Part shown: positions 14,137 to 54,394 of the stretch, one piece after another | Numbering within the stretch: the stretch's first letter is position 1 | Layout of the letters: each line of letters opens with the position of its first letter | Assembly: GCF_963576615.1 (NCBI RefSeq) | Contig: NC_088715.1 | Location: 28,472,463 to 28,536,462 of the forward strand | DNA from: Watersipora subatra | Lineage: Eukaryota > Bryozoa > Gymnolaemata > Cheilostomatida > Watersiporidae | Direction: 5' to 3' | DNA: 64,000 bases | Translations under genes and position numbers: made by a program | Notes under the pieces: model-generated | The model's database searches: none | Told to the model about the DNA's origin: nothing | Seen by the model: the letters and a program-made list of their open reading frames with translations, nothing else

Positions 14137-14142
14137 AGTAAT

Positions 14143-14362
14143 AGTAGTTATGTTACCGCCTCTACGCTTAGATAATTTTTACTTTTGCGCACTTCTTTCC
14201 GTATGCAGTTTTTGCTAGTGCAAAGCTGTTTGTGCACATCATTAGTTACGTTGATCTACGCTTAGATAATTCTGTGAGCAAGCCTTGACCACAACTATGA
14301 TGCTCATGATTGCTCTTCTATTCGAAACTTTCACAAGATCTGCATCAGTGATTATCGCACTG
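14143..14362 (+). repeat. Polinton left inverted terminal repeat
   Basis: It aligns by eye with the complement of 32470-32688 over about 220 bp, with many substitutions and small gaps. The outer 25 bases are identical. It contains two copies of TCTACGCTTAGATAATT about 100 bp apart. Weaker similarity may extend further inward. Confidence 0.9.
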
Positions 14363-14842
14363 TGCTAGTCAAGAAACCTAGCATTGCCATTACAGGCTGT
14401 ATTCTATAGGTTATGTTCTGCTCGCATAACATCGCTACTTATGATGGAACTGTTTGTAAGACTCAACTCAATCTGCAGACAATTTTTGTTTCGACCTTTG
14501 AGGTCTCTTCAGTGCAGCTCAGAGTTTGATCATTACTATTATGTGAGTATACTAATTCTTTTTAGCCTTTCTTTCGTTGAATAAGTTTTTACTATTCTTT
14601 TTACTAGTTACATTCTTTGTATGGTGCTTTGCTAGGCTATATGTATATTAGAATGCTATTTTTGTTCCTCGATGTGGCACAGCAGTAAAGTGAGTAAAGA
14701 GTGTTTGATGTATCTCATATTTAGTAATACAGCAATTGCAACAGAGTATAATAACATATTGTCTATGTTGTAAATAAGCATACCCATGATTAGTATTGGG
14801 CATTGGCTACGCTTTGAATGATCAGAGGAATATCAATCACAT

Positions 14843-15279
14843 TTAAACTGCTATAGTAGTGTTGATAACATTTCTGTACTTGTGTATTGTATAGCTATAG
14901 ACGAAAGCATCATTTGCAAAAGTATCTCCATTATCGTCAAGAAGATTAATAATATGATCTAGAGGGAACCCCTTTGCCATATGCGTTAGAAAGAAGATAC
15001 AATATTCTCCGCATACAGTAGAGAATGGAGTCTGAAGTGATTTGGCATTATATGTCCAGTCTATGCAATTAGCCAGTACATCTCCCACTTCGGGTAAATT
15101 GTAAGGTGCGTATCCATAGCTGTCAAAATATATACCAGTTCTGTCTCTGTTTTTGATAAAACACACCCAATGTTCGCCTCTTTCTGTATGTGGCTTTGTG
15201 TTGATCACGGCGCATGATGGAAAGGTGAACTCTTCGTTAGGAATCTTGTCAATACCCCCCTAAAGTTTAGCTTGTCCAT
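14843..15279 (-). pseudogene. adenain-like cysteine protease (PRO), one frameshift near its start
   Basis: In Polintons and adenoviruses this protease processes capsid and core proteins during virion maturation. The downstream 121 codons (from a GTG at 15208) hold the C5-family order: His in GEHWV (residues 12-16), an acidic residue in YFDSYG, a Gln in the SLQTPF loop, and the nucleophile region CGEYC. An ATG at 15279, overlapping the 3' end of the capsid gene, opens a second frame that reaches a run of six G (15255-15260) and is then out of phase with the catalytic part. Either the gene is broken there or the run is miscounted in the assembly. Total length would be about 145 codons, short compared with adenain (about 200). 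Confidence 0.85.
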
Positions 15280-16631
15280 ATCTTTATCAGCTTTGAGTAC
15301 TTTGTATATTTGCTCCGTATCCATCGCGAGAAATTTGTCAAAACTTGTCTGTTTTTATCAATCTTGATCGCTGCATCGCTTTCAGCAAACACAATAATGT
15401 TGACTGATTCGGTAAGAGCGCTAGCAAACTTTAACTCCAGTCTAATGCTTCCTTTCTTAAGTATGTGATAGCAACCAGATTCGTCTTGATCTGGAGTAAG
15501 GTCAAAGGCTAACAGCGAATAACCTTGGTTAAAATCTGATCTATCAAAATCAACGCCACCGTTGTTAAATATGTGTCCTGTACTTTGTAGGAGCATGAAA
15601 TAATTTCTCAGTGTTTCTCCAGTAGTGAAGTTACTCACTAACGGTTTTTGTGGAACCATTTTTCCATCAATTAGTAGAGTGCAATAGCACAGGTTTTGAT
15701 GAGTAAAATTGAACGGGTTTTTATCATACCCGCCTTCGAAAGCTTTAGAGGTTACAAAACCAATAACTATTCTTTTTGGTAGAATACCGCTAAATAGACT
15801 TTCTTCGTTCATAGACAGTGAGCCTGTGGTTACATTATAGGTTTTCATATCAACCTTTCTAATAGGGTAAATAGCTGGTTGCATTTTTTTATCCATCAAC
15901 TCGATGTGCTGCAACTGTATACCATTGTTTACCTTAACCTTTCTCACAAAAAACGATGCAGCAGTTATTTTTAATTTGTGAGTTGAGTTGTTTGCGCCCA
16001 TCAAAACGAATTTATCAGAATTTCTGATGAGTTTTATTTGCATATCTACCCCATTTAGTAGCAACCGCTTTTGGAAAAAAATAACCGAATGGAGTTTACA
16101 TATGAGTGGTACCGTTTTGCTTTTATCGGTAAATCCTCTTCTCGCGACTAACCCTGTATTAGCGTCAGCGATATCATCCATTTGGCCTGGTGTATCTTTT
16201 GAGTATAGACTCATAGTCAGTTGTGATTTTTTAGACTCATCGCTAAATGACAGTAAAGTCTCGAGATAAGCTCTGTAGTGGTACAGGTTTGATGACGATG
16301 TGATCAATGTATCATTTAGCCATACGTCTACTTGCCCGAACAAGCTGTGAGCTAACAGATTAACTGGACCTATCTGAGTTCCAGCATCGATGTCGGTTCC
16401 ATCTTGCTTGGTAATTTTTACTTCTAAATACAAGTAACTAGAGTAAGGGTCTATGTAGTGGTTTGAGTCTCCCGAAATCATGAATTTTATTGGACTCGTA
16501 TCGTCTAAAGATGTGGTGGGTAAATACTCAGTGCTCCAACTATCTTCTAACGCAGCCATTGTTGGTGGAGCTGAAAATATATCTAGCTCTGGCTTAGCGG
16601 CTAAGCAGCTATGCTCGAATATAAGTGACAT
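15267..16631 (-). CDS. Polinton major capsid protein (double jelly-roll, hexon-like), intact
   Basis: 454 codons from ATG to stop with no break. It corresponds to the Polinton MCP family whose members are found in animal genomes as long ORFs next to the penton and protease. Visible conserved pieces are the early strand IKFMISGDSNHYIDPYSSYL (about residues 46-65), LAHSLFGQVDVWLNDTLI, then YHYRAYLETLLSFS, and a basic C-terminal end. Members form pseudohexameric trimers that tile an icosahedral shell. It ends inside the start of the protease gene and begins 10 bp downstream of the pX-like gene, so the four virion genes form a tight cluster. It is the only large provirus gene without a lesion. 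Confidence 0.9.
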   Translation of the reverse strand: MSLIFEHSCLAAKPELDIFSAPPTMAALEDSWSTEYLPTTSLDDTSPIKFMISGDSNHYIDPYSSYLYLEVKITKQDGTDIDAGTQIGPVNLLAHSLFGQVDVWLNDTLITSSSNLYHYRAYLETLLSFSDESKKSQLTMSLYSKDTPGQMDDIADANTGLVARRGFTDKSKTVPLICKLHSVIFFQKRLLLNGVDMQIKLIRNSDKFVLMGANNSTHKLKITAASFFVRKVKVNNGIQLQHIELMDKKMQPAIYPIRKVDMKTYNVTTGSLSMNEESLFSGILPKRIVIGFVTSKAFEGGYDKNPFNFTHQNLCYCTLLIDGKMVPQKPLVSNFTTGETLRNYFMLLQSTGHIFNNGGVDFDRSDFNQGYSLLAFDLTPDQDESGCYHILKKGSIRLELKFASALTESVNIIVFAESDAAIKIDKNRQVLTNFSRWIRSKYTKYSKLIKIWTS

Positions 16632-16640
16632 TTTTCTTTG

Positions 16641-17113
16641 TTATGCGTTAAAGATATCTCTAGGTTCTGCTTTTTGTTTGAGTCTTCTACGCTTAACGGG
16701 TAGTGAAGAAGTGATTGTTGTTTTGCTTTGTCGTTTTCTTTTATTCTTTCGTTTAACCGACTTACCGCCAACTATATAGCTCACATTGTTTAAACCTTTA
16801 GCCAGTATATCATTGCCAGCGGCTTTCAAATTTGTTTTTAACGATGTTTTCACATTTTTACCGGTCAAACCATCCTTGACAACATTTATACCGTGTTTTA
16901 GAGCAGTTTTTCCAATGCTAGAAGCTTTTTTATTATTGGTAGCGCGGCTTTTAGTAATCCGCCAAAGACTCCTCCGAGACCATAGCCAACTTGCGTTTTA
17001 GATCCACTAAATATAGGTATTGAGCCTGAGCCAGTTTGACTATAGAAATGTTTGTACGATTGTTCAGCGTGATTACAATCGAATGGTACGAGATGCATTC
17101 TGTAATTATTCAT
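16641..17113 (-). pseudogene. pX/pVI-like small virion protein, split by one frameshift
   Basis: Two minus frames, 16898-17113 (71 codons) and 16641-16868 (75 codons), read as the two halves of one gene. The N-terminal half has a Gly-rich amphipathic stretch (GYGLGGVFGGLLKAALPIIK), a hallmark of the Polinton pX-like and adenoviral membrane-active capsid proteins. The C-terminal half is very basic with an RKNKRKR-type cluster and a KRRRLKQK motif, suited to DNA binding or nuclear import. The frame changes in or near a run of A on the coding strand (complement of 16926-16931), and no stop separates the halves apart from the shift. The start ATG overlaps the penton stop by 8 bases. Confidence 0.75.
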
Positions 17114-17934
17114 AAATAGGTAATACTCTTCTTATATCTAGTGTAACAATGACACGTCCGTCTTCGAATGGTACACGCTTTTTATAGTCTGTGTATATAT
17201 AGATAGATATAGTGCTCACACTCTTTTTAGAAACAGGAACGTATTGGATCTTGTTGAATTTCGTAGATTGCATTTTCCAGTGACCTTCTTCTACGATGAC
17301 TGATCGCAAAAGACGCATTTCAACATCCCCGACAATGGTTTCAGATGCTATATCGCAATAAACTAACAGTTCAAATATTGTATGAAGACGAACTACACTC
17401 GTTCCTTTTGTAACCATGTAGTGATCATTTCCATTTTTCATTAAAACTGAATTGTTGGTAATAGATGTTCCGAAACTCATAAAAGTTCTTTCCATCCCAA
17501 TCAGATCAGCCAGACTTTTTGAGTAAGTTATTCCTATATTTCTTCTAGCCACAGCTTTTATCAATCCCGCTACATTTTCTTGTTATGTCGTTGTATTCGA
17601 ATGAAACTACTTCTTCTTTGACATTCTCTGTTATGCTATCATTTAGCTGTTTGATTAAATCTGATGCTGACTCGTAATATCCATCGGGAATAGTTACTTT
17701 GTGATCAGTCCCATTTAACAAAATGATGACATAAGCGTTTTTAATATTGTGCCATGACATGTAAAATGATATCTCGTCTAGTCCAACTTCCCATCTTCCT
17801 TTTGCTAGATCAATAGTTTGAGGTAATTTAACTGTATACTCAGCTATCGTATTGCTTGGAAAGTGTTTTAGAGAGGCGTTACTCGGTAGTACAACCCTCA
17901 TCTTGCGAACAATGAGCGATTGACTCAAGAGCAT
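17106..17934 (-). pseudogene. Polinton penton (minor capsid, PY) protein, one frameshift
   Basis: Pentons are single-jelly-roll proteins occupying the 12 vertices. The first frame (17545-17934, 129 codons) carries the family signature LPSNASLKHFPSNTIAEYTV, a WEVGLDEI motif and the IPDGYYES segment. The second frame (17106-17564, 152 codons) supplies the rest. They overlap by 20 bases, and the shift lies at a short A run on the coding strand near 17565-17570. Apart from that there is no stop. It is followed directly by the pX-like gene (8-base overlap). Combined length of about 275 codons is normal for the family. Confidence 0.85.
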
Positions 17935-17998
17935 TAGTTCTTATAGTCTTTAATCAAATCTGATTTGTTTATGTATGAGTTGAAGCTAGAATCATATC

Positions 17999-19038
17999 CT
18001 AACCATTTGATGAGATACTGTTTTTTCCTTTTACTTGTCGCTGACCCACAATTGATTCTATCTTGTATGTGTTGTCTTTAACTCTTATTTTTTGCAGCTC
18101 TGGCTCATACCACGTTCCAATGAGTTCATTGTTGTGGTCATCACTGAGAGAATATGCAGGTGAAGTGGTGCTATGCCTTTTGGAAATGGTAAAGATTTCT
18201 TCAGTCCAATTTGGTAAGTATGATTTAGCAAAAGTAGTGGCGTATTTAGATATTCTCTCTTTATCACCGAGTTGAAATTTAAACTTACATTTGATTTCTG
18301 TGATAGGCTTATCGGGATTATACACACTTTGCCATACCTTTTCTTGGTTAGCGTAATTTATTTCATTAGGAGCTCTACTGTGAGCCCTGTGAAGTGTAGA
18401 GTTGTATGACTCGATCAAATCTTGTAACACATCGATATACCTGTAGCTATTGGTATGAGTGAAATAACGATATATCTTTTGCTTTAGCGTACGCATCAAC
18501 CTCTCGACATAGCTAGCTTTGATTTCTTGGTTGGTGTAGGTGTAATGATAAATATTATATTTCTTGAATACATTTTGTGTGTAAGCGTTTAGAAACTCTG
18601 TACCTTTATCCGTTTGACAATATAATACATCTTGGTTTTGACTTTGTAAAAATTTATCAATTGCTTTGCTAACTTCTAAACCAGACTTCGACTTTAGTGG
18701 AATACCATGTGCCTTTCTGCTAAAGACCTCGATAATAAACAATATGTATTTGTATCCATCATTGTACTTTGCAAACTGAGAAAAAATGGCTAGATCCAGT
18801 TTTATTAAATGATTGACACCCGTAACGATATATAGCTTCTTCTTTTGAACTTTTTTCTAGCCGGTTTATGTAGAGTGTACGAATCAGTTTGTTGCAGCCA
18901 TTTATCGACGTTTGCTGATGATACTTTGTTTTTTATGGCAGCTTGTAGCTTTGTTCTTCTAGTAAATCTCACTTTGTGCTTTGGGTTAAAGTATACATTT
19001 GTTATATTAGTTTGCCTTCCGCTTTTGTTTTTTCGCAT
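17999..19038 (-). pseudogene. Polinton retroviral-type integrase, one frameshift
   Basis: A DDE integrase that inserts Polinton ends and generates the 6-bp duplication. The N-terminal piece (ATG at 19038) is basic and includes the DSYTLHKPARKKFKR motif that precedes the catalytic core in Polinton integrases. A frameshift occurs at about 18830-18840. After it come the first catalytic Asp (before the 247-codon part), the second Asp in CQTDKGTEF and the Glu in ASYVERLMRTLK, 35 residues apart as in a D,D35E core. The C-terminal 90 residues resemble the chromodomain-like tail of this family (GTWYEPELQKI). The core residues are all present. Confidence 0.88.
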
Positions 19039-19463
19039 ATTTTTTAGCGATCGTGTGACTCCCAATTGCCAAGCCCTGCTTTCTTCTGCGTATCTCGCTG
19101 ATGGGAGTGAGACTTTATACTTTCATTTTCAGATACAACCAGATTTGATGGTAGTGGTATTTTGCTCTCACGCGTTAACAGAGATTTAGGAATATTGATT
19201 TCAGTCAGAAGTTGATGAAATCTATCCCATCCTGGTATGTCTTTCTTTAGCTGTCTTGGATTCACTGCCTTGTTTACCATATCTGAAATGTTATTGTTTG
19301 GAATCGGTTCGCCTTTGATGCTTACTTTACCATTATCAAAAACTTTCGGGCTAGTGGTTTTTTTCAATATAAACCACAAATTTTCAGCTTTGTGGTTTAG
19401 GTTGATACGGTTTAGGTATTATTTCTATTGGGTTGTAAATACCCCCTTGGCTTTTATCGAGGT

Positions 19464-20239
19464 TACAGTGTAACCTCGGTTCTCGACCATAATCCGTTCC
19501 TGAAGGTTGTTCACACACCGAGTTGTTCGAACACCGAAATCATTTTTCCCATTACAAATAAGGTAAATTGTTTTAATCCGTTCCAACACCCTGAATGTTT
19601 ACCTTGTTAGTACATGTACATGTATTTTATACATTATTTTATGCATGAAATTGCACATTAAAATGCTGACCAACACATAAAAAAACAATGTATATCTCAG
19701 AAAATGTTAAGCAAAATGGCAAAGACACAAATAACATAAACATAACTGTAACCCGTAAAACGTAATGTAATTACTATCGTAATCTTCCATACGAAAGATT
19801 TCGTTAACATGAACGTGTAAAAATAAAAAAGGATAAAGAAAAGAATTATGAATAGGATTTTTTAGGATACAGGATGTTCTTTTCTCTTAAAATATCTATC
19901 CAATGACACTTGCTTCTGCCTTCTTTTTAACACTTTTCGGAAGTGGTTCATGATAGTGCCGTTAAAGTCATTGATGACTCTTGTGGCTGCAGCTTTATCG
20001 GAGTGGTGGAGTTTGCCGAAATTCTGTAACTCGGCCCATTTGCTACACATTTGTTTAATCTCGGACGTCGGGGCATCCTTTCTTGGCGACAACAGTTGGT
20101 CACGGTCAACGCCGCTCAGCATCCGGCGTTCGAACTCCGATTTTTGTTCGAACTACGAAGCAAGAATTGCTTGAATTTTTTGTTCGGACTCCGATTTGTT
20201 CGAACTGCGAGTCGTTCGAAAACCGAGGTTACACTGTAT
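19464..20239. mobile_element. pogo/Tigger-type transposon remnant, 772 bp, TA duplication
   Basis: The element is 19466-20237, with ends CAGTGTAACCTCGGTT and the complement, flanked by TA (19464-19465, 20238-20239). The interior has several GTTCGAA-type subterminal repeats near both ends and one transposase fragment (19862-20122, minus). TA duplication, CAGT ends and the Tigger-like protein identify a pogo-group Tc1/mariner element. It inserted into an existing Polinton gene, so it is younger than the provirus. Confidence 0.92.
19862..20122 (-). pseudogene. Tigger/pogo transposase C-terminal fragment
   Basis: 86 codons resembling the C-terminal tail of Tigger/Jerky-type transposases, recognisable by a helix around NDFNGTIMNHFRKVLKRRQK followed by SLDRYFKRKE. 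In this family that segment follows the DDE domain. The DDE core and the CENP-B-type DNA-binding domain are absent, so the fragment cannot be active. It runs antisense to the transposon orientation shown and parallel to the Polinton genes only by chance. Confidence 0.7.
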
Positions 20240-20497
20240 TTGTTTTTGAGACACCGAGTTCTTTAGAGGGTTGAGAACTTTGACTTGATACGGTTTGATA
20301 CTGTAACAGTAAATTGTTGTACCTCTGAACCTTTTCATCAGTAGAGAGTGATGAATCATTAATTATTTCCATCATGTTTTTGTCTAAGCTCTCGATTTCT
20401 TTAGACAACAATGGCTTTGTTCTCTCCTTATAACCTTCTGTCGAATGTTTAATTTGGGAAGCATTTACTAAATAAATTTTTTTTATACTTTTCACGC

Positions 20498-20845
20498 TCA
20501 TTGCTTTCGTTTTTCAAAAATACCACTCAATAATGGTGTGATCACTGACCCTAGCAGAGGGGCTAAAAGTGAACTCAAGAAACCACCTTTTTGAATCAGA
20601 GCTTTTTTAGTTTTTTTAACAGTTGATTTGTCAGCGATCTTTCTTATATGTTTTTTGTATTTTATTAATCGTTTTCTCTCTGTAGGTGCGAGCTTAATAT
20701 TTCTTCGCAACAAATTGTGACAAGTATCTGAAAAACAATCAATAAGTTGCGGTAATCCCTTTTCAATAATAGACTTTGCTGTACGTTTATCACAGCTCGC
20801 TAAACAGTGCAAGGTTGGAGCAAATCTTCTAAGTTTCTGACTCAT
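20498..20845 (-). CDS. conserved Polinton protein of unknown function, 115 codons
   Basis: An intact frame from ATG at 20845. It is helical and basic, with a run near residues 45-65 (RRNIKLAPTERKRLIKYKKH) followed by QKGGFLSSLLAPLLG, a hydrophobic Gly-rich tail. I recognise this order (basic middle, QKGGF, hydrophobic end) from the small ORF between ATPase and integrase in animal Polintons. The function is not established; a virion core or membrane role is a guess from the tail. Its start overlaps the original 3' end of the ATPase reading frame by 17 bases, and its stop overlaps the next gene. Confidence 0.7.
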   Translation of the reverse strand: MSQKLRRFAPTLHCLASCDKRTAKSIIEKGLPQLIDCFSDTCHNLLRRNIKLAPTERKRLIKYKKHIRKIADKSTVKKTKKALIQKGGFLSSLLAPLLGSVITPLLSGIFEKRKQ

Positions 20846-20905
20846 GTTCTTGCTCGTTCACCACATGTCGTGGTAATGACATAGCTTCATCTCTGCTAGT
20901 GTAAA

Positions 20906-22028
20906 TACAGTCAAACATGGATAACTCGAACTTCAAGGGACCGAGCAAAAGTGTTCGAATTATCAGAGCATTCAAGTTATCAGAGCACTGTCACAAGTCC
21001 ATGTATTTACTTATTTATTAGTAGATACATGTACATATACAAACTATAGTATAAATCAAAAGCACAAATGGCTTGTTTCAAATTAAATGCTTCTAATGTA
21101 AAGTTTAAAACGTTTTCATGAAAAAGTATAGAGATTTTTCTATCACTTGAGATTGGTTTGTTGTTTGAGGTGATGTTATTGCCAGGACGTTTTTCAGATT
21201 GACATTGGCAAAACTTGATCGTTGTTGAAATGCTCAAAAGAAAAGACATTTTTTTCTTTTGGGGTTTTACCCACCATCAATTTTGCCGTTTTTTCTTGAA
21301 GTTTATGCAGATTACTTTACTTTACCTGGGATTCGTTAAGAGCAACACTCCGAGGCAGTTCAATTAGAAGTTTTACGAGGTTTTACGGTACATTCTATAT
21401 CGCTCACGCTTTTTTAATAGATACTTATTGAATGTACACACGTATTCTGTGTTTAGGTCAAACGATGAATAGTTTTTTGTAGCTCAGACAACGTATACGT
21501 TTAATTACAACATTTTTTAAGACGTTTTAAACATTCAACATTCCGACGTTGATTCAACACGGAATCAACGTCGGAAAACTATTCATCACGGGCTAGCCGA
21601 GTCACGCACTCAAGGATTTTCGCCACGCACATACAAAACAACATGCGATTTTTGTTTTGTATGTGCGTGGCGAAAATTCTTGCGCGCGTGACCCGGCTAG
21701 CCCGTGCTATTCATCGTATCGCTGTATAAATCAAATTTCACCAAACTTAGAAAAGTCGTTGACAAAAATATTTTGCCGATGGTGGTAATAACGACGCTTA
21801 TGAATTACGAAAAGATGAAGTTTACCTCTATGGCTTTGAATAAAGTGATTTTCTAAAGCGAAAACAACCGTTTCGGTAGCTGTTGGGCAAAAAAACAGTT
21901 CGAATTAACAGTGTTGAATTCGAGTTATCTATAGCAATTTATCATTACGTGGGAACGGACCAAAGGAAATGTTCGAATTAACCATTTTTTCGAGCTATCC
22001 GTGGACGAGTTATCCATGTTTGACTGTA
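20906..22028. mobile_element. pogo-type non-autonomous transposon (family T2), 1119 bp, TA duplication
   Basis: The element is 20908-22026. Both ends read CAGTCAAACATGGATAACTCG (one as complement) and TA flanks both sides (20906-20907, 22027-22028). Repeated GATAACTCGAA / CGAATTATCAGA motifs lie near both ends. There is no transposase. It carries a nested hairpin at 21587-21706 and a GTTGATTCAACACGGAATCA-type repeat at 21546-21576. It sits in the last codons of the packaging ATPase. A truncated relative lies at 12285-12558. Confidence 0.93.
21587..21706. repeat. long hairpin inside the T2 transposon
   Basis: An inverted repeat with arms of about 52-55 bp and a short loop. The outer arms read CACGGGCTAGCC and GGCTAGCCCGTG; the inner arms include CGCCACGCACATACAAAACA. 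Only a few mismatches occur. It is GC-rich compared with the surroundings, so it is likely a small foldback element nested in the transposon. Confidence 0.85.
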
Positions 22029-22618
22029 TATGTTTTTTCATCATGAAATATATTCGTTCTAACTCTCAATAGGTCAGGAGTTTCTTGCTTCAAATCTAAG
22101 AAGAGGTAGCCAAATGGTACCGATGTAGCATCATTAAAGGCTTCGATTAAGAAATTAGACTTTTTTCCATACATTTGCGTAGAAAGACACATGATTTGGT
22201 TTACATCTCTAGGATTTGTAAACATTACTAAGTACGACGTGTTAAGTGACATAGTTCTCAAGTGTTTGCTGTTATGAAACATATTTTGGGTTATAAAGAT
22301 AACGCTAGCATTTCTGTGGTGACTGTATTTTGTAAACATCATTTCTATGTTTTTACCGCATTCCGTTAAAAGATCATCATAAATAACCAAATTATTTATA
22401 TTTCCATCTAAAATAGATGCATCAATGGCTCCTTCGTGAAACTCAACAGCTTTAAAGCACTCAGATCCATATAATGGTTGCCATTCACTATAGCAATAAT
22501 AAATTTTTTTGGGTGTTGGCTTTATCATTTCTTTATGAAATCTTATCAATTTGGCTATAAATGTAGACTTTCCCGCTCTACTAGGACCAGCGATTATAGC
22601 GGAAAAGCTGTGTTCCAA
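22010..22618 (-). pseudogene. Polinton packaging ATPase (FtsK/HerA, A32-like), C-terminus cut by a transposon
   Basis: This family pumps viral DNA into the capsid. Walker A is GPSRAGKST (about residues 11-19), Walker B is LVIYDDLL (about 77-84), and a sensor-like IFITQN follows at about 108-113. The first in-frame start here is TTG; no ATG lies upstream before a stop at about 22650, so an upstream exon or a lost start is likely. The last seven codons of the present frame are made of the transposon end (22026 and below). On the far side of the insertion, with one TA copy removed, the frame stays open to a stop at about 20829, inside the next gene. The C-terminus was therefore intact until the insertion. 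Confidence 0.88.
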
Positions 22619-22721
22619 TGGTAGTGTTATAATTCTGCCAAATTATCAACATACGACGTTAATCAGAAAATGTAATGGGTTTTGCAAATTTTGTACAACT
22701 GATCATTTGGAGTTGGTGTAT

Positions 22722-22735
22722 GCTTATATATACAT
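22722..22735 (-). promoter_or_regulatory. TATA box upstream of the ATPase region
   Basis: On the minus strand ATGTATATATAAGC, identical over 14 bases to the site at 23233-23246. It lies about 100 bases upstream of the ATPase frame and just past the end of the Bcl-2-like ORF. Confidence 0.6.
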
Positions 22736-22744
22736 GAAACAGGA

Positions 22745-23173: not shown

Positions 23174-23232
23174 AACTGATAGTTAATAAGAGAATGACAG
23201 CTAATCACTAAGCATCATAGAATATGAAGTAA

Positions 23233-23246
23233 GCTTATATATACAT
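23233..23246 (-). promoter_or_regulatory. TATA box upstream of the 142-codon ORF
   Basis: The minus strand reads ATGTATATATAAGC, 60 bases before the ATG at 23173. It is the same 14-mer as the ATPase-side site, and it lies just after the polymerase stop. Confidence 0.65.
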
Positions 23247-23276
23247 TCGGCAATACTCGTATCACAAGCAAATGAT

Positions 23277-26200
23277 TTACAACTGCGTAGGCAACGTGGT
23301 TACATCATCGGCGCATACAACCCTCTTGCCATACATGTAGTTTAGCCCTTTCCTATGCTGGGTATACGTAAACATTGAATTGTTTTTAGAGCGAATGCCT
23401 TTGTTAGTTCCAGTGCTAATTTTACGAGTTAGCAAAACATTCATATAGTCCTCTTTATCGAGTTGAGTGTGTCTCTTACTGATGCCCTTTGAGCTGTATT
23501 TTGGCTGTTTGCCAAAACAGTAGTAGCACTTGCTGCACAGGGCAATGACACGTCAGATACATTTACTACATGAAAAAGACCGGCTTGTCTAAGATAGTAC
23601 TTAGCTGCATGCGTACAACATTGTTGTGCTTTCCAACATTGACTCGCAAAGACCGTTCGAAAAAAGTCATCTTTGTGGTCGTTGCAATATTCTCGAGATA
23701 GCCATTTTTCATACTCGTTTACGAATTCACCTCGTTTGTCTTCTTTTACTGCCAAGTACAATGTTTCTTTGCTGAGGCTCATTTAGAGCGAGTCTGTATC
23801 GCATTGTATGAGACAAAAGTCTTCGAACGGGACAAATTTAAGTAGAAAGTCATAGTAAAACTGTAGCAAAAGCAACTTTCCATATTCCAGTACGAAAAAT
23901 CCTATTTGAACTGGTATGTTTAATCGCACCATGCGTTTCGCTTTCTCAACTTCTATAATCTTTCCGTCATCTATTTGTTGCAGGTCTCGAAATTGATGAT
24001 TGTTTATTAGGCTACCCACAGTGATATCATCCGTCTCGTGAAAGGATACATGCGTGTGTGCCTCAACATTGGTAAGGGTTCTCCCATAGGCGCTGTTGCC
24101 TACAAATGGAAATCATTAGGTTAGATCTATGCGTTCACTGTTACCATTCGTATCATATGGTCAGACAATTTTCTTACCTATTAGTTTGCAGTTGTCTGAG
24201 ATAGCTTTCTTTGTAGGATCAATGTCTCCATCTCTGCGTGCGCTCATGACTTCTTGGCCAAATCGAGTGAAGCACTTGGAGGGTTTATATTGAATCACTT
24301 GGTATACCTTTGTACACTTTATATTGTGGTTCATGTACCATCGTAACAGAGGTGTTGCCAATAAAATCTTTTTAGCGAAATAACTGTTTATCTTGGCTGG
24401 GCGTTTTAATAGATCATGCTTCTCGGCAAACTCTTTCATATGATCTCCAATATCATCTCTAGACAAATATGCGTGCTTGGTAATAGGCTGAAACTCAGAA
24501 AATATCTCCTTATATTGATCTGGGACATGAATGTCGACTTCAGCTATACCAAACATCTCTCTATTCTCTATCTCCTTCAGTATTTGCTCTTCTGTTAGTT
24601 TGTATCGATTGTCAACGGGTACACGTAAACCCATACAAAACTTTACTGTTTCTGTATGGTCTACTTTCATTCTGTCAAAAACGCATTCCCACACATGATA
24701 AACTTTTTATCCTAGATCCATGAAATATTGTAAATGTTTGTATGTTTTAGCTCTGTTTTCTTTGTCCTCACTCACGTTGTTTCGAATACCAACAGGTGTA
24801 CGTGAACACATGTGGCTGTGATACCAGCAACCGCTGTAGTTTAGAACTATCTCTTCACCTTCATCCGTTACACCATACGCATCTACTGGGATATTTAATC
24901 CTCCAATTCTTTTTTCCGTACCATTAAATTGATGCCGTAATGGTATATTAAGCTGTTTGCTCATCCATTCTATCCACTCAGTAGCCTGTTCACCAGTTGC
25001 GCGGCTTTTCTCTATTTTATAGTTTGTTTCTCGTCGACGTCTAACAAAAGCACCCGTGGGCATGTCACATAACGAGAGATTGTGTAGGTACATTGCACTG
25101 CAGTCCCAACCCATACAAACTTGTGTATGTATTCGGTTTTGATTTTAGTTTTTTCCTTCTCTTGATAGCGATGAAAAACGAGGCTGAGACCTCCTCTAAT
25201 GTTTTTGCGTATTAAATGATATAAATCGTTGAATTTGTTTCCAAACAAAAATATAGGTGACTCTGGATCTTTTAGCTGGAATAGATATCGAATTGAAAGT
25301 CCTGGAACTGAAATTGCTGACTTGAAGTCCAAGTTTCGACTTTTAAAGAATTCATTTTGTCTTTCGATAAGCTGTGACTATAGTGGAGCTACATCAGCTT
25401 CATTGTAATAAATTAGAAGGTCACGAAGTGTAGTCATTTTTTCTTTTGTCCAGACATTCTTACAATGCTCGTATTCTTCATCTGATATACCCTTTCTTTT
25501 TAGATCGCTGTAAAATTCTTCCTTCTTAGGAAAATCCATTCGTTTTAGCACTTCCATCGATGTAAATTGTTCATAAATCCAGTAAAACTTTCCGCTTTCT
25601 ACATCCATTGCCTTTAGATAATCACTTAGCGATATGCCTTCTGGTGAGAAGTTGGCAATGTCCAGAAATCTGAGCTTTTCCGTTTGTATCATCATATACT
25701 TGCTGCCTTTGTATCATCATTTACTTGCTGCCTTTTTTTAATAACAACGTCAATTTTTGTACGGTTCTCCAGCAACTATCTAACAATGTGTTTCTTCATT
25801 AAAGGAATATCGAAGGATTTGCTTTGAAAATCAAAACGCATCAAATCTTTTAAATAACTGTCCAAATCTTCTTCAAGAGTTTCATATTTGCGTTCTATTT
25901 TGCTCACACCAATTCCATCCATCGCTGAAGACTCTCTTTTTATAGCTGATGTTCTAGCTTTCTCAAGTTTGTCAAATATATCTTTGTATCGCAACTGCAT
26001 TCTGTCATAGCAAACACCAGAAAGCATTTCTAAATATATCATCATTTTCTTGACTACAAGATACTCATCATCTTCATCATTAAGGAATGTTTGCGGGGTT
26101 TTAAAACCAACGATGTTGGAGCACACAGACGCTGACGCAAGCCTATGTTCTGCTACCCATTCTATGGTTTTTGTAGGGTTTGGTAGATTGCTTGTGTCAA

Positions 26201-27666
26201 GATAGCTTTCACAGTCGAAAACGGCTATGTATGGATAATGCTTATGACTTTCATCCACTACAATTCCAATGTCGTTTAGCTTCTCAAATATAGTCTTTGG
26301 AGGTGAGTACACGCCTGAAGGATATATAAGTTTGGTTTGTGCAGAACATCCACGCGTATGACTATTTAGCAGTCGAAGAGAAGTTACAAGTTTTGTACAG
26401 AACATACATTTGTAGGACTTGGTGTATTGTCGTAAATTGAATATCCAACAGAAATGATAATCTTGCAAATGCAAATTGAGCTTTTCTCTGCAATTGTTCT
26501 GTGAGCGATAAACTAGCGTAGCCACAGCCGAGTCCTCATTTCCTTCCAACTTGAAGACGTTTATTGAGATGTTAAATATCTTCTCTACATTTGGTAGCTC
26601 CGTCAGTGAAATACCCTTAAAACTTTTTGCTTCATTAGTAGTGCTTTGAATACACTTCTTAAAATATTTGTTTGTGGTAGATTCTAAAGTTTTCTTTTCT
26701 TTTCGCATACATGCGATCGCGCGGAATAAGCAAAGGTTGTTTTGGTAAGGCTGTCCCGAACTATCCAAATCAGCCGACACTATTGCCTTGTTGCGTTTGA
26801 TGTAGTCTGGTAAAGTCGTTGGACATCCGATGGTACGATTTGGTATCGGATACAGATAGAATGTGATGTTGGTTATCAAATGCAGAGACCAAACTGTTGA
26901 TGGTCTCGCTCGAGTTGCTCTTTCTATAAACTGCTTCTGAGAAAGTTGTTCTAAAAAGTCTTTATAGTCAGCTTCGTTTTCTATCAACAATGGGGTATCA
27001 AAAAGTTTGTCATGTCCCGCACTGGCATGCCAGTATCGCAATCTGTTTGTTTCATTGTTCACTAGCACAAACCCAATGGAAGCCTGTAGCTTAAATTTTA
27101 AACTTTGTTCATAGAATATGTTCATTGCATTCAATTCAGATAGTGATTTCTGTATATCATTATTTTCCACTCACAGATTGTAGAGTCTAGAATATTTGCG
27201 ACGCATGCTGTAGTTACGAATCGCTGTGCAATTTCTCCTCAACACTTTGTTAGTTTGACGTTTGTAGATTCCTTTGTAACTAGAAGTGAATTCAGTTTCA
27301 TCATGAAACCGAATGGGTAAACAATCAGAAGGTTCAACACGTCCGTTATTGTTGGCAGTTTCAGTCTAAAATAGTAACGGCATTTCATAATCTAGCGTAA
27401 TTATTTACGGCTAACTCGCTCTACTTTCATAGTGTTTCAGTTGATTCAAAGAAATGAGTTCAATTTCATAAGAATATATCATAAATTAGAGTGAAGGAGT
27501 ATCAATTTTATAGCAATTACCTTACACACGTGCTTAGATTGCTTCCAGGGAGATATTAGTTGGTTGCAAGTTGAGCATCTTACTTTGTGCACATTTAGGT
27601 GTCTTGACAGCCCAGACTGATACTTGTACTTTTTTGCGCATAGGAAACAGTCATATTTGCTCACAT
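23277..27666 (-). pseudogene. protein-primed DNA polymerase B with zinc-finger leader exon; multiply broken
   Basis: Polinton replicase. An upstream exon (27531-27666) holds a C2H2 finger (CFLCAKKYKYQSGLSRHLNVH) and a second Cys pair; a 165-nt intron (27366-27530, GT...AG) leads into the main frame. In it are a further zinc-binding patch (YKCMFC...HTRGC), the exonuclease I motif in IAVFDCESY, motif A (GWDCSAMY), motif B, which is interrupted by a clean 78-nt intron (24100-24177), and motif C (CDTDSL). Lesions on the coding strand are: stops at about 27171-27173, 25776, 25378, 24707 and 23783 (the last directly after motif C); a 25-bp tandem duplication at about 25697-25746 that shifts frame; and frameshifts near 25110 and 23515. 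Length without breaks is about 1,300 residues, normal for the family. The gene is dead but recent enough to read throughout. Confidence 0.9.
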
Positions 27667-27872
27667 CTGTAGCATAAATATTTGGCTATTTATTGATTAA
27701 TGATGAATACATATTTGCATAGGAATGTGTACGTTTTAAAAAGTAAACCACCAGCATCAATATTCAATCAGCATTTTATTCAATCATAGATAAGCATAAT
27801 ATAGGGGACTATCCGTATATATGAAAAATCAGTAACTCATTCTGTATGTACAGCATAGAAAGGTGTTAGCTG

Positions 27873-28394
27873 TTATAATGGAATACAATCACAAGTGAAT
27901 TTGACAAAACTGATGTATTCGCATTCAACATTCGCATTGTCTACATTCGCATTGTCTAATAACCAATGAAAAGCATCTGTAAATAACTTTCTAGTAAAAT
28001 ACTGGGGTATAATAATCATTTTTGAGATTATATCTAATTGTACTTTTTCTTTTGAAAGTTCTTTGTAAACATTCTCTATAGTAGTGAATACTCTCCTCAC
28101 AAAATGCTCAAAGTTTGGTTCTCTTTCAGGTATCAATAGTATTACATCCCAAAGCAGCGCACCATCCACGTATAAAGGGTACCGGGTGATCATCAAAGAA
28201 ACAAAGGAGAGCCTTTCCATTTCATCATGCGTTTGTGGCTGCGCCTGATACCTTTCATACAACTGCTCTAGGTACTGTTTATGGATTGACAAAATTGACT
28301 CATTAGTTATTGGGTTGTTTTTGATTTTACTGTCAATGAATAGTTTGTAAGTAGAATATGTGTTGCTGCAGGCTGCATCAAGTTTATACCACAA
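27873..28394 (-). CDS. unrecognised helical Polinton ORF, 173 codons
   Basis: Open frame, hydrophilic then amphipathic helices, with regularly spaced aromatic residues and five Cys. There is no motif I can name. No ATG precedes it in frame; the first start is TTG at 28394, and an acceptor-like TTTTGTAG lies 14 bases further upstream on the coding strand, so it may be a final exon whose first exon I did not find. A near-duplicated NANVDNANVE patch occurs close to the C-terminus. It sits between the polymerase and a 92-codon ORF, with the same direction and similar composition. Confidence 0.45.
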   Translation of the reverse strand: MWYKLDAACSNTYSTYKLFIDSKIKNNPITNESILSIHKQYLEQLYERYQAQPQTHDEMERLSFVSLMITRYPLYVDGALLWDVILLIPEREPNFEHFVRRVFTTIENVYKELSKEKVQLDIISKMIIIPQYFTRKLFTDAFHWLLDNANVDNANVECEYISFVKFTCDCIPL

Positions 28395-28484
28395 AGTACA
28401 ATTTTCTACAAAACATCAACCAAACCATTATAAACATTTATTCAGCGGTTAAAACGGTTTGAGTTATAGTTGTACAATGTTCGT

Positions 28485-28763
28485 TTACGCTGTAAAGAAT
28501 CTAAGTTTTGGCTGATCTACTACATGAAAATATCCTTTGTGTCCAGAAGGCAAGTCTTTCAAATTGGCCTCCAAAATTTGAACTTTCCACTCATACTCTC
28601 GTTTAGACTTTTTAAGAATTTTACCAGACTGTAATACAACTTCAAAGTACCCTGTTTTCGAACCAAGCTCGTCTAGAGGAATGAGTTTTTCCAAATCATT
28701 TTCAAGAACATTTAAGCACTTTTGCTTTTGCTCATTTTGGATAGTGATAGGAAACACACTCAT
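28485..28763 (-). CDS. unrecognised Polinton ORF, 92 codons
   Basis: Intact from ATG. An acidic first third (NVLENDLEKLIPLDELG) is followed by alternating beta-type segments with charged turns (GYFEVVLQSGKILKKSKREY) and a C-terminal aromatic end. It looks like a small compact beta or alpha/beta protein. No family is recognised. It lies 68 bases after the spliced leader gene, in the same direction. Confidence 0.45.
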   Translation of the reverse strand: MSVFPITIQNEQKQKCLNVLENDLEKLIPLDELGSKTGYFEVVLQSGKILKKSKREYEWKVQILEANLKDLPSGHKGYFHVVDQPKLRFFTA

Positions 28764-28830
28764 GCGTACGGCTTCATTTTTACCATAAAACGATAATGTT
28801 TAGTTCTTTCCAAGCAATCTCTCGACGCAT

Positions 28831-29994
28831 TTACGAATGCACTCCAAAACTTCTCCCTTTTTGATCAGAACAGAAGTTGAATACTTTGATTGAAACGTTT
28901 GCAGCCTGCCTGTGTATGTTCCAGATTTTATATACAATGTACAATCTGGTATTGTTTTGGTATGACAATGCAAAAGTAGTCGGGTCTACTTGACAAATTC
29001 CCAACTTGTTTGTAGAAAAGTTGTCGTTCAAATCAATGTATACACCTTTTAGTGTAGCATCTTTTTCATCCTCGGAGCTTTCAGATGAACTGTCATTAAG
29101 TTTTTTCATTTCATAATTCTCATCTTCACCTGTAAGTCTGAAACAATTAAATTCAATGCATCAGTTTATTTTTAGATACGAGAATACAAGCATGACATGC
29201 AAATAAAATAATTGTTAGCATTTTATGTCACGTTTTCCATGGTATTTTGTGGAACTTTGACCACTTAATAATATCATGTGCAACTGTATGCACATAGTAT
29301 CGCGCATGTCTTTGCATGGTTCATATTGTGTGAAATATCATCCACTTGGTATTGTCACTAACTTGTGCACATAATATTGTGTGCAACTTTTCTCACTGAA
29401 TTTGCAATTTGCAATCTTTTTACACTTGGAATTGTGATTAATAGTGGGTTTCAAGTTTGTAACTCACTCGCTTAGCTGCTTGGATGATTGCCCAATTTTG
29501 TCTGGTATAGAACTTGTCTTCTGGGTTGAGCTCTCTGATGAGATAGATTCTTTGCTAAAAATGTACACATATGCAATGAATAATGGTAACCAAACTTATT
29601 CTATGCATGCATGTTTAACCTAAATTTGGTCTGCGAAAAGTTTCAACAACAGATACTCTTGCTCAGTTATTCTTAAATAGAAAGCATTTAACGATAATAA
29701 TAAACTTACTTCTCATCTTTAGACTTTCTTTTCTTCGCCGATGGAGCTTCATCGCCCCTCTTTTGCCTCCTATATAAATAAAAATTTGGACCCTTTAGTT
29801 TATAGCTTAGACTACATAATATTTACAAATTTGCTATCTAACTTATACTAAGATATAAACTATTTTAAATATACATTATATTTGAATGATACTTACACTC
29901 TTTCTTTAGATAATTCTTTTCGAAACATCTTCCTCTTCTCCGTAAGCTCTTTCTGTAGCTTATCAATAGCGTCTCTTGATAGCTCTCCTTCCAT
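28831..29994 (-). CDS. four-exon Polinton gene, basic/acidic nuclear-type protein
   Basis: Exons 29897-29994, 29710-29769, 29468-29554 and 28831-29137 join to 552 nt, exactly 184 codons including the stop. All three introns have GT...AG ends (donors GTAAGT, GTAAGT, GTGAGT; T-rich acceptors). The product begins with a coiled-coil-type helix (MEGELSRDAIDKLQKELTEK), then a nuclear-localisation-like KKRKSKDEK, a Ser-rich linker, an acidic Ser patch (SSSESSEDEKD) and a 70-residue mostly hydrophobic C-terminal domain. A second frame at the 3' end stays open past the stop, so a late frameshift is possible. The function is unknown; regulator, terminal protein or DNA-binding factor are all guesses. 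A TATA box lies 47 bases upstream. Confidence 0.75.
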
Positions 29995-30040
29995 GGTTAG
30001 CGACGAGGTACAAGACTAAAGGATCACTTTTCATTCTAGC

Positions 30041-30047
30041 TTTTATA
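30041..30047 (-). promoter_or_regulatory. TATA box of the four-exon gene
   Basis: TATAAAA on the minus strand, 47 bases before the ATG at 29994, at a reasonable distance for a short 5' leader. Confidence 0.6.
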
Positions 30048-30305
30048 CAAAAAATAGTTAGCATTGCTCTTATCAATCACGCATAGTCTAGGCCTTGTCG
30101 GCCAAAGTTGGCAGAGATGGCTGTTATTTTTTTCTACGCGTTAACCCTTGCACCATAGACCAAGTTCCAAATTGTTAATTTTGTAGCTGCGCAGCAACTA
30201 ATTCAGTTGTAAGACATCAGAAGCGCGTATTATATAATCATTGAACCAAAGGCTTTTTCGTAGACTCCTATCTCTAGTTCACTCGCTCAAGATGGGAGGT
30301 AATAC

Positions 30306-31134
30306 TTAAGGCGTGGTCACACGAGCACCGAACCGAACTAAATGACGCAAAACGACGTCGCTCTCAGCTGTAAAAAGTTCGGCCGAAGACATTTCTAGCC
30401 GAAACGAACTATTTCGGTACTGCTCGAAATTTCGTGTCGAACCCTTGCTCTTATTGGCTGGTTAAAATTCTAGAATTCTAGCGAGCACGCGTCACATTTC
30501 TCCTAGCGTGCGTGTGAGTAAAGTTAAAAAAGAAATGGGACGATACTTTTATTTCGTTAAATAAACAACATGAAGCAATTTACGACAAGGTTCACCCGGA
30601 CTAGTGATTGGGTTGCATAAATGTAAGATGTTGCACTTAAGTTTTGAATAAATGTAAGGGAATGGTTGTGATTTTCTTTTGTGTAGAATATAAGTAATGT
30701 GTCATATTCATCCTGATGAAGTGCCGTTGACTGATTTATTTATGTAAAACTACAGTACTATGATAAAGACTGTTTTTGTTTGTTATGTACTCAGCATAGA
30801 AAAACATTCATATGTTAATAGAAAAAAATAATTATGTTGATGGGAAGGGTTAGCAAAATCTTTGTATCGAGTGATTTATTTTGAGCAGCTGAACGATCTT
30901 CTGATAAATCTGCTGTGTAAATATAATTTATAATTGTTCCTCAAAGTTTTTTGTTTACAATAGAAATATTTAACTCAAATACATAACAACTACTAATGAA
31001 ACCGTGTCCTGTCTCTATACGTATGGTATCTAGGAAGCGAAGTGACTTCGGATGCCGTGTGACATGTGCCACGAACCGAACCAGCCTCCGAACCGATCCT
31101 ATGTCGGTTCGGTGCTCGTGTGACCACGCCTTTA
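30306..31134. mobile_element. MITE, 823 bp, TTA duplication, inserted in the Polinton
   Basis: The element is 30309-31131. Its ends are AGGCGTGGTCACACGAGCAC and the complement, flanked by TTA (30306-30308, 31132-31134), matching the 3-bp TWA-type duplication of PIF/Harbinger elements. There is no coding capacity. A partial relative lies at 42632-42925. Confidence 0.92.
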
Positions 31135-31450
31135 GTCATACTCGCCTATTGATGTAATCTCTTAAGATGATATCTTCATCCTGTTTTTTTCGTAATTTAT
31201 CCTGTTTTGCAAGTTAATAACGTGAATGTTACGAAGCTTTTGCGAGTCAATACGCTTGCTGTTCTTGCGTAGACTTACCCGCTAATTGACAGCATTCATC
31301 TCGTTTTACAACACAATGTCTACATTACTTTGTAGGCTGCCATATTCATTCTCCACAAACACTTTCATGGTCATAGCAGATGATGTATTTATTGTTAAAT
31401 ATCGTGTAGAAATTATTTAGCCAAAAGCATCATTTGCGTATCAGCGCAAC

Positions 31451-32068
31451 CTAGCTTGTAATAGGATACAACTTGACTACTCTCATAACAATCATTGAAA
31501 ATCTATCCACTAAATAATACGGTATCGCTATACCTTTAATGGAAGCTTCATCATGCAAAAAATATCTTACATCTAAAATTAGTTCTCTTCTTTCATTTTT
31601 GCAAAAAGATACTTTTATATTATTATCAAGATCATATTGTACAAAACAATTATTATATGAATGGTTAACTCTTGAATTGTTGACTTTCCACCTTACTTCA
31701 TTAGACGCTGTGAGATTGCAATCTGTCTCAATTGCAGGCAATGCAGTTCTATGGTGAATATTCAAGCAAATTCCAAAACCGATGGCGAGACAAATACGCA
31801 AGAGAAACAGACTAGCTCTGTATTTGGTTGCATAAAACAGTGTAGCTTGATCAGTAAGTTTTAGATTGCGCTTCAATCTCACTGAGGATGGGGTGCGAGG
31901 TGTATCAATAGGTTCACTCGATATCATTGTGGCGCCTGAAGGAACTTGAGGACTTATACGTATAGACTCTATAGTCTCGTGATTGGATGTAGGAGACATG
32001 GATGACCTATTGACGTAAGCTGTAGACGTTACGGGAGCGAATGCTGTATTCAAATGACAGACATACAT
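31451..32068 (-). CDS. 205-codon membrane protein, Polinton cargo gene of unknown role
   Basis: Intact from ATG. Residues 1-80 are Ser/Thr/Pro-rich and look disordered. About residues 87-105 (LFLLRICLAIGFGICLNI) form one membrane-spanning helix with basic residues before it. The following 100 residues have three Cys, NLT and NHS sequons and a compact end containing ELILDVRYFLHDEASIKGIA. That last part resembles the PC4/p15 coactivator core (DIR...KGI), but a DNA-binding core behind a membrane helix would be odd. It lies next to the right terminal repeat, beyond the Harbinger-type insertion. Coding appears real because it is intact while its neighbours are decayed. Alternatives are a virion or surface glycoprotein, or a captured host gene. 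Confidence 0.55.
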   Translation of the reverse strand: MYVCHLNTAFAPVTSTAYVNRSSMSPTSNHETIESIRISPQVPSGATMISSEPIDTPRTPSSVRLKRNLKLTDQATLFYATKYRASLFLLRICLAIGFGICLNIHHRTALPAIETDCNLTASNEVRWKVNNSRVNHSYNNCFVQYDLDNNIKVSFCKNERRELILDVRYFLHDEASIKGIAIPYYLVDRFSMIVMRVVKLYPITS

Positions 32069-32121
32069 GTATTAACATTCCTTATAATTAGTAGTATTGT
32101 AATAATTTTTAAGGCTGTCAT

Positions 32122-32155
32122 GCCGCCTCCGCGACTGTAAAATTGCGGAGGCAGC
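32122..32155. repeat. short GC-rich hairpin near the provirus right end
   Basis: GCCGCCTCCGC and GCGGAGGCAGC are inverted around a 12-base loop in an AT-rich region, 50-90 bases upstream of the 205-codon gene. Its role is unknown. Confidence 0.5.
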
Positions 32156-32469
32156 TCATTGTACGTTGTTCCATAACCACTAGTTTCACAAGTTTTTTTT
32201 GCAATACTGTACCAAAAAAAAATTGGACTATAATTGTGCTATCTGAATAGATCACTCTAGAAAATTTTACAGCCACTTTTTAACTCTTTTTGAGGGACAT
32301 TATGGATAAATGCGCAGAAAGATTGTACAAGAAGTAAAGGCATGAGCGTAGAGTAACAATTGATGATCAAGCATGCATAGAAAATCTTTGACTGTAATTC
32401 AGTGTAGATTGGGTCTGGGGTCTTGTGATTACGACCACTGAGCTTTAGGAGCCTGTGAAAGTGCAGGGC

Positions 32470-32688
32470 GATAATAACTGATACTCGTGGAAGTGTCTTG
32501 AATAGAGAGCAATCCTGAGCATCAATCATAGTTGTGGTCAAGGTTTGCTCACAGAATTATCTAAGCGCAGATCAGCGTAACTAATGAGGTGCAAATATTG
32601 CACAGCCTTGCCCTAGCAAAAACTGCCCACAGAAAAATGTGCGCAAACGTGAGAATTATCTAAGCGTAGAGGCGGTAACATAACTACT
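32470..32688 (-). repeat. Polinton right inverted terminal repeat
   Basis: The complement of the left repeat, with matching AGTAGTTATG end and the same pair of internal motifs (complement of TACGCTTAGATAATT at about 32653 and 32552). The 94-codon minus frame that overlaps this zone (32257-32541) is not counted as a gene. Confidence 0.9.
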
Positions 32689-32694
32689 AGTAAT

Positions 32695-54382: not shown

Positions 54383-54394
54383 TTGGCGACGAGG

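What the first reader, a model, noticed from the sequence alone, without database searches (positions are those of the whole stretch)
14137..32694. Full-length Polinton/adintovirus provirus with both ends and a perfect 6-bp duplication
Seen directly: AGTAAT on both sides, inverted AGTAGTTATG ends, and the complete core set in one orientation (PolB, integrase, ATPase, protease, MCP, penton, pX). Complete copies with readable ends are useful for defining the family in this host. The preserved duplication shows integrase-mediated insertion with no later recombination of the ends.
Basis: partly seen in the sequence, partly recalled or inferred. Interest (0 to 1): 0.9.

Follow-up and report, generated by a model that had tools for sequence, protein, structure and literature searches.

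The report
Decayed patchwork virus in bryozoan chromosome
A virus-like element with both ends readable sits in a chromosome of the bryozoan Watersipora subatra; untouched copies of its landing site lie nearby, most of its genes are now broken, and its two ends group with different lineages of such elements, a trace of recombination between them.

Summary
The window is Watersipora subatra chromosome 8. The element spans 14143-32688 (18,546 bp), with AGTAAT on both sides and inverted ends that align for about 225 bp. It is a Polinton/Maverick of adintovirus type: double-jelly-roll MCP, integrase with chromodomain (whole in a sister copy), OTU-like domain in PolB, (AGT)2//(ACT)2 ends.

The interpretation needs correcting. 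This copy is not coding-complete: 8 of 13 genes are broken and three host transposons (about 2.7 kb) are nested inside. It is also a mosaic: to about 30.1 kb its closest relative is copy B (91-99%), but the last 1.6 kb group with copies I and J, and the right terminal repeat with I and K (100% support each), where B is only about 80% alike. Drift since insertion does not explain the unequal ends; exchange before integration is the likelier reading, later gene conversion the other. PolB has two intron-like gaps shared by sister copies, unlike reported vertebrate Mavericks. In passing: a second Polinton family with at least 40 near-identical capsid-gene copies.

The parts
14137..14142 (.). target-site duplication, left copy AGTAAT
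   Evidence: single AGTAAT in 4 of 4 empty paralogous sites
14143..14362 (+). left terminal inverted repeat (groups with copy B's left end)
14793..15324 (-). adenain-like protease remnant, in three frame segments
15267..16631 (-). major capsid protein: frame open over the whole 436 aa of relatives, natural stop lost (18 extra aa)
16644..17113 (-). minor capsid protein remnant, one frameshift
   Evidence: name recalled from Polinton gene order
17109..17934 (-). penton remnant, one frameshift
   Evidence: homologous stretches among L001-L003; name recalled
17937..19072 (-). rve integrase with C-terminal chromodomain, frames broken
19023..20501 (-). gene of 237 aa in copies B and C, split by nested transposon 1, with a frameshift and a stop
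19466..20236 (.). nested transposon 1, 771 bp, CAGTG... inverted ends, TA duplication; absent from copies B, C, D
20501..20845 (-). uninterrupted 115-aa frame, function unknown
20832..22630 (-). packaging-type ATPase, split by nested transposon 2
20908..22026 (.). nested transposon 2, 1119 bp, CAGTC... inverted ends, TA duplication; absent from copies B, C, D
22748..23173 (-). uninterrupted 142-aa frame, function unknown
23277..27685 (-). PolB gene: zinc-finger exon, OTU-like domain, polymerase motifs; in several pieces
24100..24177 (-). putative spliceosomal intron 2 of PolB, 78 nt, GTAAG...TAG, between KLI-G and NSAYG
   Evidence: same position in copies B and C
27366..27520 (-). putative spliceosomal intron 1 of PolB, 155 nt, GTAAT...TAG
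   Evidence: same position in copies B and C
27876..28394 (-). uninterrupted 173-aa frame, function unknown
28488..29148 (-). gene of 219 aa in copy B, frameshift and stop
30143..31174 (.). interval holding the switch of nearest relative (B-like to the left, I/J-like to the right)
30309..31131 (.). nested transposon 3, 823 bp, 28-bp inverted ends, TTA duplication; absent from copy I
31451..32068 (-). uninterrupted 205-aa frame in the exchanged end segment; one membrane span by eye; no homologue at E 0.001 in the protein search
32464..32688 (-). right terminal inverted repeat (groups with the ends of copies I and K)
32689..32694 (.). target-site duplication, right copy AGTAAT

Best explanation
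This is an endogenous Polinton/Maverick of adintovirus type in Watersipora subatra. A linear element whose two ends already came from different co-resident lineages was inserted by its rve-chromodomain integrase into an AGTAAT site in a locally duplicated stretch of chromosome 8, with a 6-bp staggered cut. It has since decayed by point mutations, frameshifts and three nested host DNA transposons, with signs that its MCP gene is no longer under purifying selection. Shown: the ends, the duplication, four empty paralogous sites, gene identity by profile or fold for protease, MCP and integrase, the nested insertions, and the conflict between trees of different segments. Inferred: integrase action, exchange of the end before integration (during replication of two elements in one cell), splicing of PolB, and packaging into particles at some earlier time.
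For: Ends and duplication. Perfect 6-bp duplication at 3 of 4 copies where a pair of ends could be read, 5 of 6 bases at the fourth. Empty sites with one AGTAAT, 4 of 4, the best 571/597 identical without gaps. MCP model pLDDT 82, matching double-jelly-roll capsid proteins (PBCV-1, Sputnik, mavirus). Integrase rve in the window, rve plus Chromo in copy C. Adenovirus-type protease. OTU proteases fill the top 18 PDB matches of the PolB N-terminal piece. Segment trees: A with B at 99-100% support in four segments, A with I and J against B and C at 100/100 in the last. Tree of ends: right end with I and K (100/97), left end with B's left end (88/88). Repeat mismatch 21/214 against 26/597 for the closest empty paralogue, Fisher one-sided P 0.004, Poisson P 0.0007. 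Private MCP codon changes nonsynonymous:synonymous A 9:7, B 1:3, C 1:10, Fisher P 0.023.
Against: The outermost 46 bases of A's right end are nearer to B (96%) than to K (91%) or I (87%), which fits a later conversion tract that stopped short of the end as well as it fits end homogenisation before integration. PolB has no Pfam match even as a 1026-aa frame in copy B; its identity rests on motifs, an OTU fold with best Foldseek E 0.02 (none at 0.001) and weak endonuclease matches. The paralogue-based age limit assumes no conversion between the duplicated flanks. Which of A, B and C carries the foreign end is not settled. The MCP test has small counts. Three of the five segment trees have only four or five tips.
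Confidence: 0.66

Rival explanations
1. Gene conversion after integration replaced part of the right end from an I/J/K-like copy elsewhere in the genome, leaving the outermost bases, flank and duplication untouched.
For: A's outermost 46 right-end bases are nearer to B (96%) than to K (91%) or I (87%), and its first ten bases read AGTAGTTATG as in B, not AGTACTCATG or AGTACTTATG as in I and K: what a tract stopping just inside the end would leave. The nearest relative switches within one interval.
Against: Only a few sites set the outermost bases apart. No close donor was found: the best relatives of the end segment are 93% (I) and 90% (J). B and C show that whole ends also differ between copies without A, so exchange is common in the family.
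Confidence: 0.28
2. The unequal ends are only age: both repeats were identical at insertion and drifted apart.
For: Repeat pairs of copies E (348/384) and F (761/880) are also 9-14% mismatched; the window copy carries other decay.
Against: The right repeat groups with I and K and the left with B. Mismatch exceeds the divergence of the closest empty paralogue. A's end branches in the segment trees are 1.6-2.8%. There are 17 gap columns against none in that paralogue.
Confidence: 0.06
3. An assembly artefact joins two different copies.
For: Long elements of one family invite mis-joins; copy D shows an odd internal duplication.
Against: Matching AGTAAT on both sides and clean empty sites; no N in the window; QV 63.2 reported for the primary assembly (PMC12902671, passages).
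Confidence: 0.05
4. It is a plain transposon, never a virus: capsid genes are passengers.
For: A second family in this genome has at least 40 nearly identical MCP copies, as a transposon would.
Against: MCP, penton and protease frames are open in copies B and C, with 1:3 and 1:10 nonsynonymous to synonymous private MCP changes. MCP relatives at 57-78% identity lie on contigs of 1.3-18 kb from unnamed sources.
Confidence: 0.15

Closest known systems
Polinton/Maverick elements of vertebrates (PMC8097293, passages seen)
   Same: 6-bp target duplication, (AGT)2//(ACT)2 end motif, capsid, integrase and PolB genes, core genes under purifying selection in living lineages
   Different: That paper saw no introns in intact elements; here PolB has two putative introns shared by copies A, B and C. 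Here the two ends group with different lineages.
Adintoviruses (PMC11071296, passages seen)
   Same: PolB with N-terminal OTU-like domain, rve integrase with C-terminal chromodomain; that paper reports mixed Alpha/Beta MCP-PolB pairings, the same kind of modular exchange
   Different: The Alpha/Beta class was not tested; here the exchange is seen within one host genome at about 70-99% DNA identity and reaches the terminal repeat.
Other MCP-bearing places in the same genome (NCBI 'F54H12.2-like' proteins)
   Same: Copies B, C and D share the capsid-to-ATPase segment with the window at 91-99%
   Different: 20 match rows (about 16 places) at 53-81% and 70 rows at 30-32% MCP identity are other lineages.
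Contigs L001-L003 filed under bacterial MAGs (mussel symbiont, Breoghania, Poribacteria)
   Same: Related MCP; penton, minor capsid, integrase, protease and ATPase relatives among them
   Different: 23-42% MCP identity; probably host DNA left in the MAGs (inference).

Membership tests
[quoted passage not shown]
Polinton/Maverick | (AGT)2//(ACT)2 or (AG)3//(CT)3 end motif | tested here: met
   ends AGTAGT...ACTACT; motif as given in PMC8097293
Polinton/Maverick | rve-type integrase | tested here: met
   PF00665 9e-10 in the window
Polinton/Maverick | protein-primed PolB | tested here: inconclusive
   NSAYG and DTDSL(Y) motifs (meaning recalled), no Pfam polymerase match
Polinton/Maverick | double-jelly-roll MCP | tested here: met
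   model pLDDT 82; matches PBCV-1, Sputnik 3j26, mavirus 6g44
Polinton/Maverick | adenain-like protease | tested here: met
   Peptidase_C5 2.4e-9, above cut-off
Polinton/Maverick | A32-type packaging ATPase | tested here: inconclusive
   Pox_A32 2.9e-4, 20.8 bits against a cut-off of 22.8
Polinton/Maverick | intronless genes (reported for intact vertebrate elements; not a defining trait of the group) | tested here: not met
   two GT-AG gaps at the same PolB positions in A, B, C; no RNA tested
Adintovirus | PolB with N-terminal OTU-like domain | tested here: met
   top 18 Foldseek matches are OTU proteases, best E 0.02, prob 0.99, none at E 0.001: moderate support
Adintovirus | integrase with C-terminal chromodomain | tested here: met
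   PF00385 1.4e-8 in copy C; matching piece 17937-18026 in the window
Adintovirus | MCP recognisable by BLASTp with adintovirus reference MCPs | not tested
   no named adintovirus reference was in hand
Intact (mobile) element | all core genes open | tested here: not met
   8 of 13 broken

The most novel reading that the evidence does not exclude
Bryozoan Polintons form a living, recombining pool: elements in one host exchange whole end segments (terminal repeat plus an adjacent gene that looks membrane-bound) and replication segments, and an element with two heterologous terminal repeats can still integrate with a normal 6-bp duplication. End exchange followed by partial repeat homogenisation (matched 162-bp ends in B and C, an unequal 225-bp pair alike only in its outermost bases in A) would be the way new combinations arise.
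Probability: 0.4. Interest if true: 0.65.

Novelty: new member of a known kind. Interest (0 to 1): 0.5.

Why it matters
It gives a Polinton insertion with verified empty sites, an upper age limit from the duplicated flank, and two terminal repeats that group with different lineages. That makes it possible to ask whether the integrase needs matched ends and how often these virus-like elements recombine inside an animal host. My searches found no paper in the held library that describes such elements in Bryozoa. An intron-bearing PolB would mean that its messages pass through the host splicing machinery.

Tried and rejected
Rejected: age alone as the cause of the unequal ends. Rejected: counting every PolB frame break as damage; two breaks are intron-like and shared by A, B and C. 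Rejected: reading the NCBI protein P0051 as a real gene; it is a gene model on this very locus that fuses the first part of the MCP to the protease. Led nowhere: MCP scans of viral contigs by single sequence and by alignment found no relative; the phage collection gave none; PHROGs gave integrase and weak matches; the 205-aa end gene had no homologue; the PDB sequence search with the MCP gave none. Copy D's right end and copy I's left end were looked for and not found. Left out of the duplication count: copy F, whose second end lacks its outermost bases, and copy G, whose candidate ends lie 55 kb apart and whose flanks do not match. Weaker partial matches to the ends were not labelled. The script stopped with an error after its first search, which had already covered L001-L003 together. 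Not done: the right-flank genome search did not complete. The alternate haplotype GCA_963576605.1 was not searched: G000 has the size of the primary assembly.
Full report
Host and place. A gene model from the protein database matches the MCP frame of the window (residues 4-231) and the whole protease frame letter for letter, and it lies on a 65,553,477-base Watersipora subatra chromosome (P0051). The window is placed at G000:C8:28472463-28536462 in a genome of 783.7 Mb, which fits chromosome 8 (65.55 Mb) of the published assembly of 783.70 Mb (PMC12902671, passages).

The observation.

The empty site. The reported relatives of the left flank all lie within about 0.8 Mb of the same chromosome (46 of 46 rows on C8, the window itself included; counts are lower bounds). 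Four other places reach the junction, and I fetched all four. All four align through the joined flanks with one AGTAAT: 571/597, 532/592, 479/561 and 483/561 identical. The closest empty paralogue differs by 4.4%, which limits the age of the insertion unless the flanks were later homogenised.

Family copies. Searches with the two ends found ten further copies or clusters of ends that I labelled B to K; A is the window. Where a pair of ends could be read, the duplications are AGTAAT (A), TAACCA (B), GATATG (C) and CGTGTC/CGTGTT (E): 3 of 4 perfect; F and G were left out. Copy D is about 99.8% identical to C, lacks its right end and carries an internal duplication.

What is broken. Against frames of copies B and C, 8 of 13 genes in the window copy are interrupted: protease, minor capsid, penton, integrase, the 237-aa gene, ATPase, PolB and the 219-aa gene. 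Uninterrupted are the MCP, which has lost the stop that B, C and D keep, and the 115-, 142-, 173- and 205-aa frames. The sister copies are not perfect either: PolB of C also changes frame once, and B carries an insertion of about 8.1 kb. Three host DNA transposons are nested in the window copy: 771 bp and 1119 bp with TA duplications, absent from B, C and D, and 823 bp with a TTA duplication, absent from I. So 18.5 kb is not the length at insertion; by subtraction that was about 15.8 kb. Private MCP codon changes are 9 nonsynonymous to 7 synonymous in A, 1:3 in B and 1:10 in C, with 2 codons differing in all three left out (A against B and C together, Fisher P 0.023).

Mosaic structure. In 500-bp steps, A and B are 91-99% alike up to about 30.1 kb, outside nested transposons, then 79-82% to 32.3 kb, and 96% over the last 46 bases of the right repeat, where I is 87% and K 91%. 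C and D are 91-99% like A to about 22.6 kb, then 77-85% through PolB and about 69-74% to 29 kb. C is 79-95% like I and K at 27.7-30 kb (90.7-92.4% in two tree segments). In the end segment B and C are 97% alike, and A is 93% like I and 90% like J. Trees give A+B in segments 18643-19460 (99/97), 25776-27170 (100/100), 28549-28905 (100/99) and 27970-28394 (100/100), and A+I+J against B+C in 31175-31935 (100/100). The tree of 15 ends puts A's left end with B's left end (88/88) and A's right end with I and K (100/97). Repeat pairs are 158/162 in B, 160/161 in C, 348/384 in E and 761/880 in F. A's 21 mismatches in 214 exceed the 9.3 expected from the closest empty paralogue (Poisson P 0.0007; Fisher one-sided P 0.004). 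So drift since insertion does not explain the unequal ends. Two readings remain: exchange before integration, which I prefer because ends differ between other copies too, and gene conversion afterwards, which the B-like outermost bases of A's right end would fit. That this is a decayed, mosaic Polinton I hold at about 0.93. I cannot say which lineage received the foreign end.

Identity. The MCP model (pLDDT 82, pTM 0.83) matches double-jelly-roll capsid proteins of PBCV-1, grouper iridovirus, Sputnik and mavirus (221 matches at E 0.001 or better). Protease and integrase are recognised by Pfam; the chromodomain is seen whole in copy C and as a fragment here. The PolB N-terminal piece gives a moderate model (pLDDT 77, pTM 0.45) whose top 18 PDB matches are OTU proteases (best E 0.02, none at E 0.001). 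The long frame of copy B has a weak Vsr-like endonuclease match. No Pfam polymerase match was found. By the description of adintoviruses in PMC11071296 (passages) this fits an adintovirus-type Polinton; the MCP reference test was not made.

Introns. Two gaps in PolB lie at the same places in A, B and C, start with GTAA and, in A and B, end with TAG; for C the first ends so and the second was cut short in the alignment, though the frame beyond it resumes at the same GNSAYG. The inner sequence differs between A/B and C more than the adjoining frames do. The second gap separates KLIG from NSAYG in frame. A relative from another source has zinc fingers and the OTU part in one frame (P0134), which agrees with the first. 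Vertebrate intact Mavericks are reported without introns (PMC8097293, passages). No RNA was examined.

Literature. A search for at least three of bryozoa, polinton, maverick and adintovir (14 papers, 13 listed, each with zero occurrences of 'bryozoa') and one for Watersipora with polinton (none) found no description of these elements in Bryozoa in the held library, which lacks most subscription journals.

Verdict. A well-supported endogenous Polinton with proven empty sites.

Noticed in passing
G000, all 11 chromosomes and C185; example L065 (C10:20366500-20374500): A second Polinton family: 70 of 94 MCP match rows are 30-32% like the window's MCP, 68 of those 70 without a stop in the match (93 of 217 candidates scored). 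With one of them as DNA query, 40 of 40 scored places are 99-100% identical over 1393 bases (119 candidates); four copies compared are 97.8-99.8% alike. One stretch shows an uninterrupted integrase-penton-minor capsid-MCP-protease row. It looks like a recent burst.
   Followed up: partly
G000:C7:9198258, C5:22593744, C5:22878144, C2:47145556, C3:12376469, C6:44296902 and others: A further MCP group or groups, 20 match rows at about 16 places, 53-81% like the window's MCP. Many rows hold stops, but one of them may be the natural stop, since the query runs past it.
   Followed up: no
L042-L043 (copy B), opposite window 17977-17981: Copy B carries an insertion of about 8.1 kb with a 5-bp overlap and opposite-strand frames of 923 and at least 1162 aa, probably a retrotransposon.
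   Followed up: no
L046-L047 (copy D, C7:49376000-49395999): Nearly identical to copy C but with an internal duplication and no right end found: recombination or assembly error.
   Followed up: partly
window 13343-14142 and C8:28.36-29.17 Mb: The insertion site lies in a stretch with many relatives within 0.8 Mb of chromosome 8 (46 rows).
   Followed up: partly
window 39454-40889, 42989-44052, 51993-53249, 54374-55161: Remnants that look like a reverse transcriptase, a retroelement integrase, a piggyBac transposase and a gag with zinc knuckle (read by eye, no search).
   Followed up: no
window 12298-12562 with 20903-21176; 42789-42904 with 30471-30587: Parts of nested transposons 2 and 3 have further copies elsewhere in the window.
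   Followed up: no
most of P0002-P0048 (P0035 is from W. subatra): MCPs at 53-78% identity on contigs from unnamed sources, closer than the named echinoderm relatives (44%): free virus or other bryozoan DNA.
   Followed up: no
L001-L003: Polinton genes on contigs filed as bacterial MAGs (mussel symbiont, Breoghania, Poribacteria), probably eukaryotic DNA left in the bins.
   Followed up: partly
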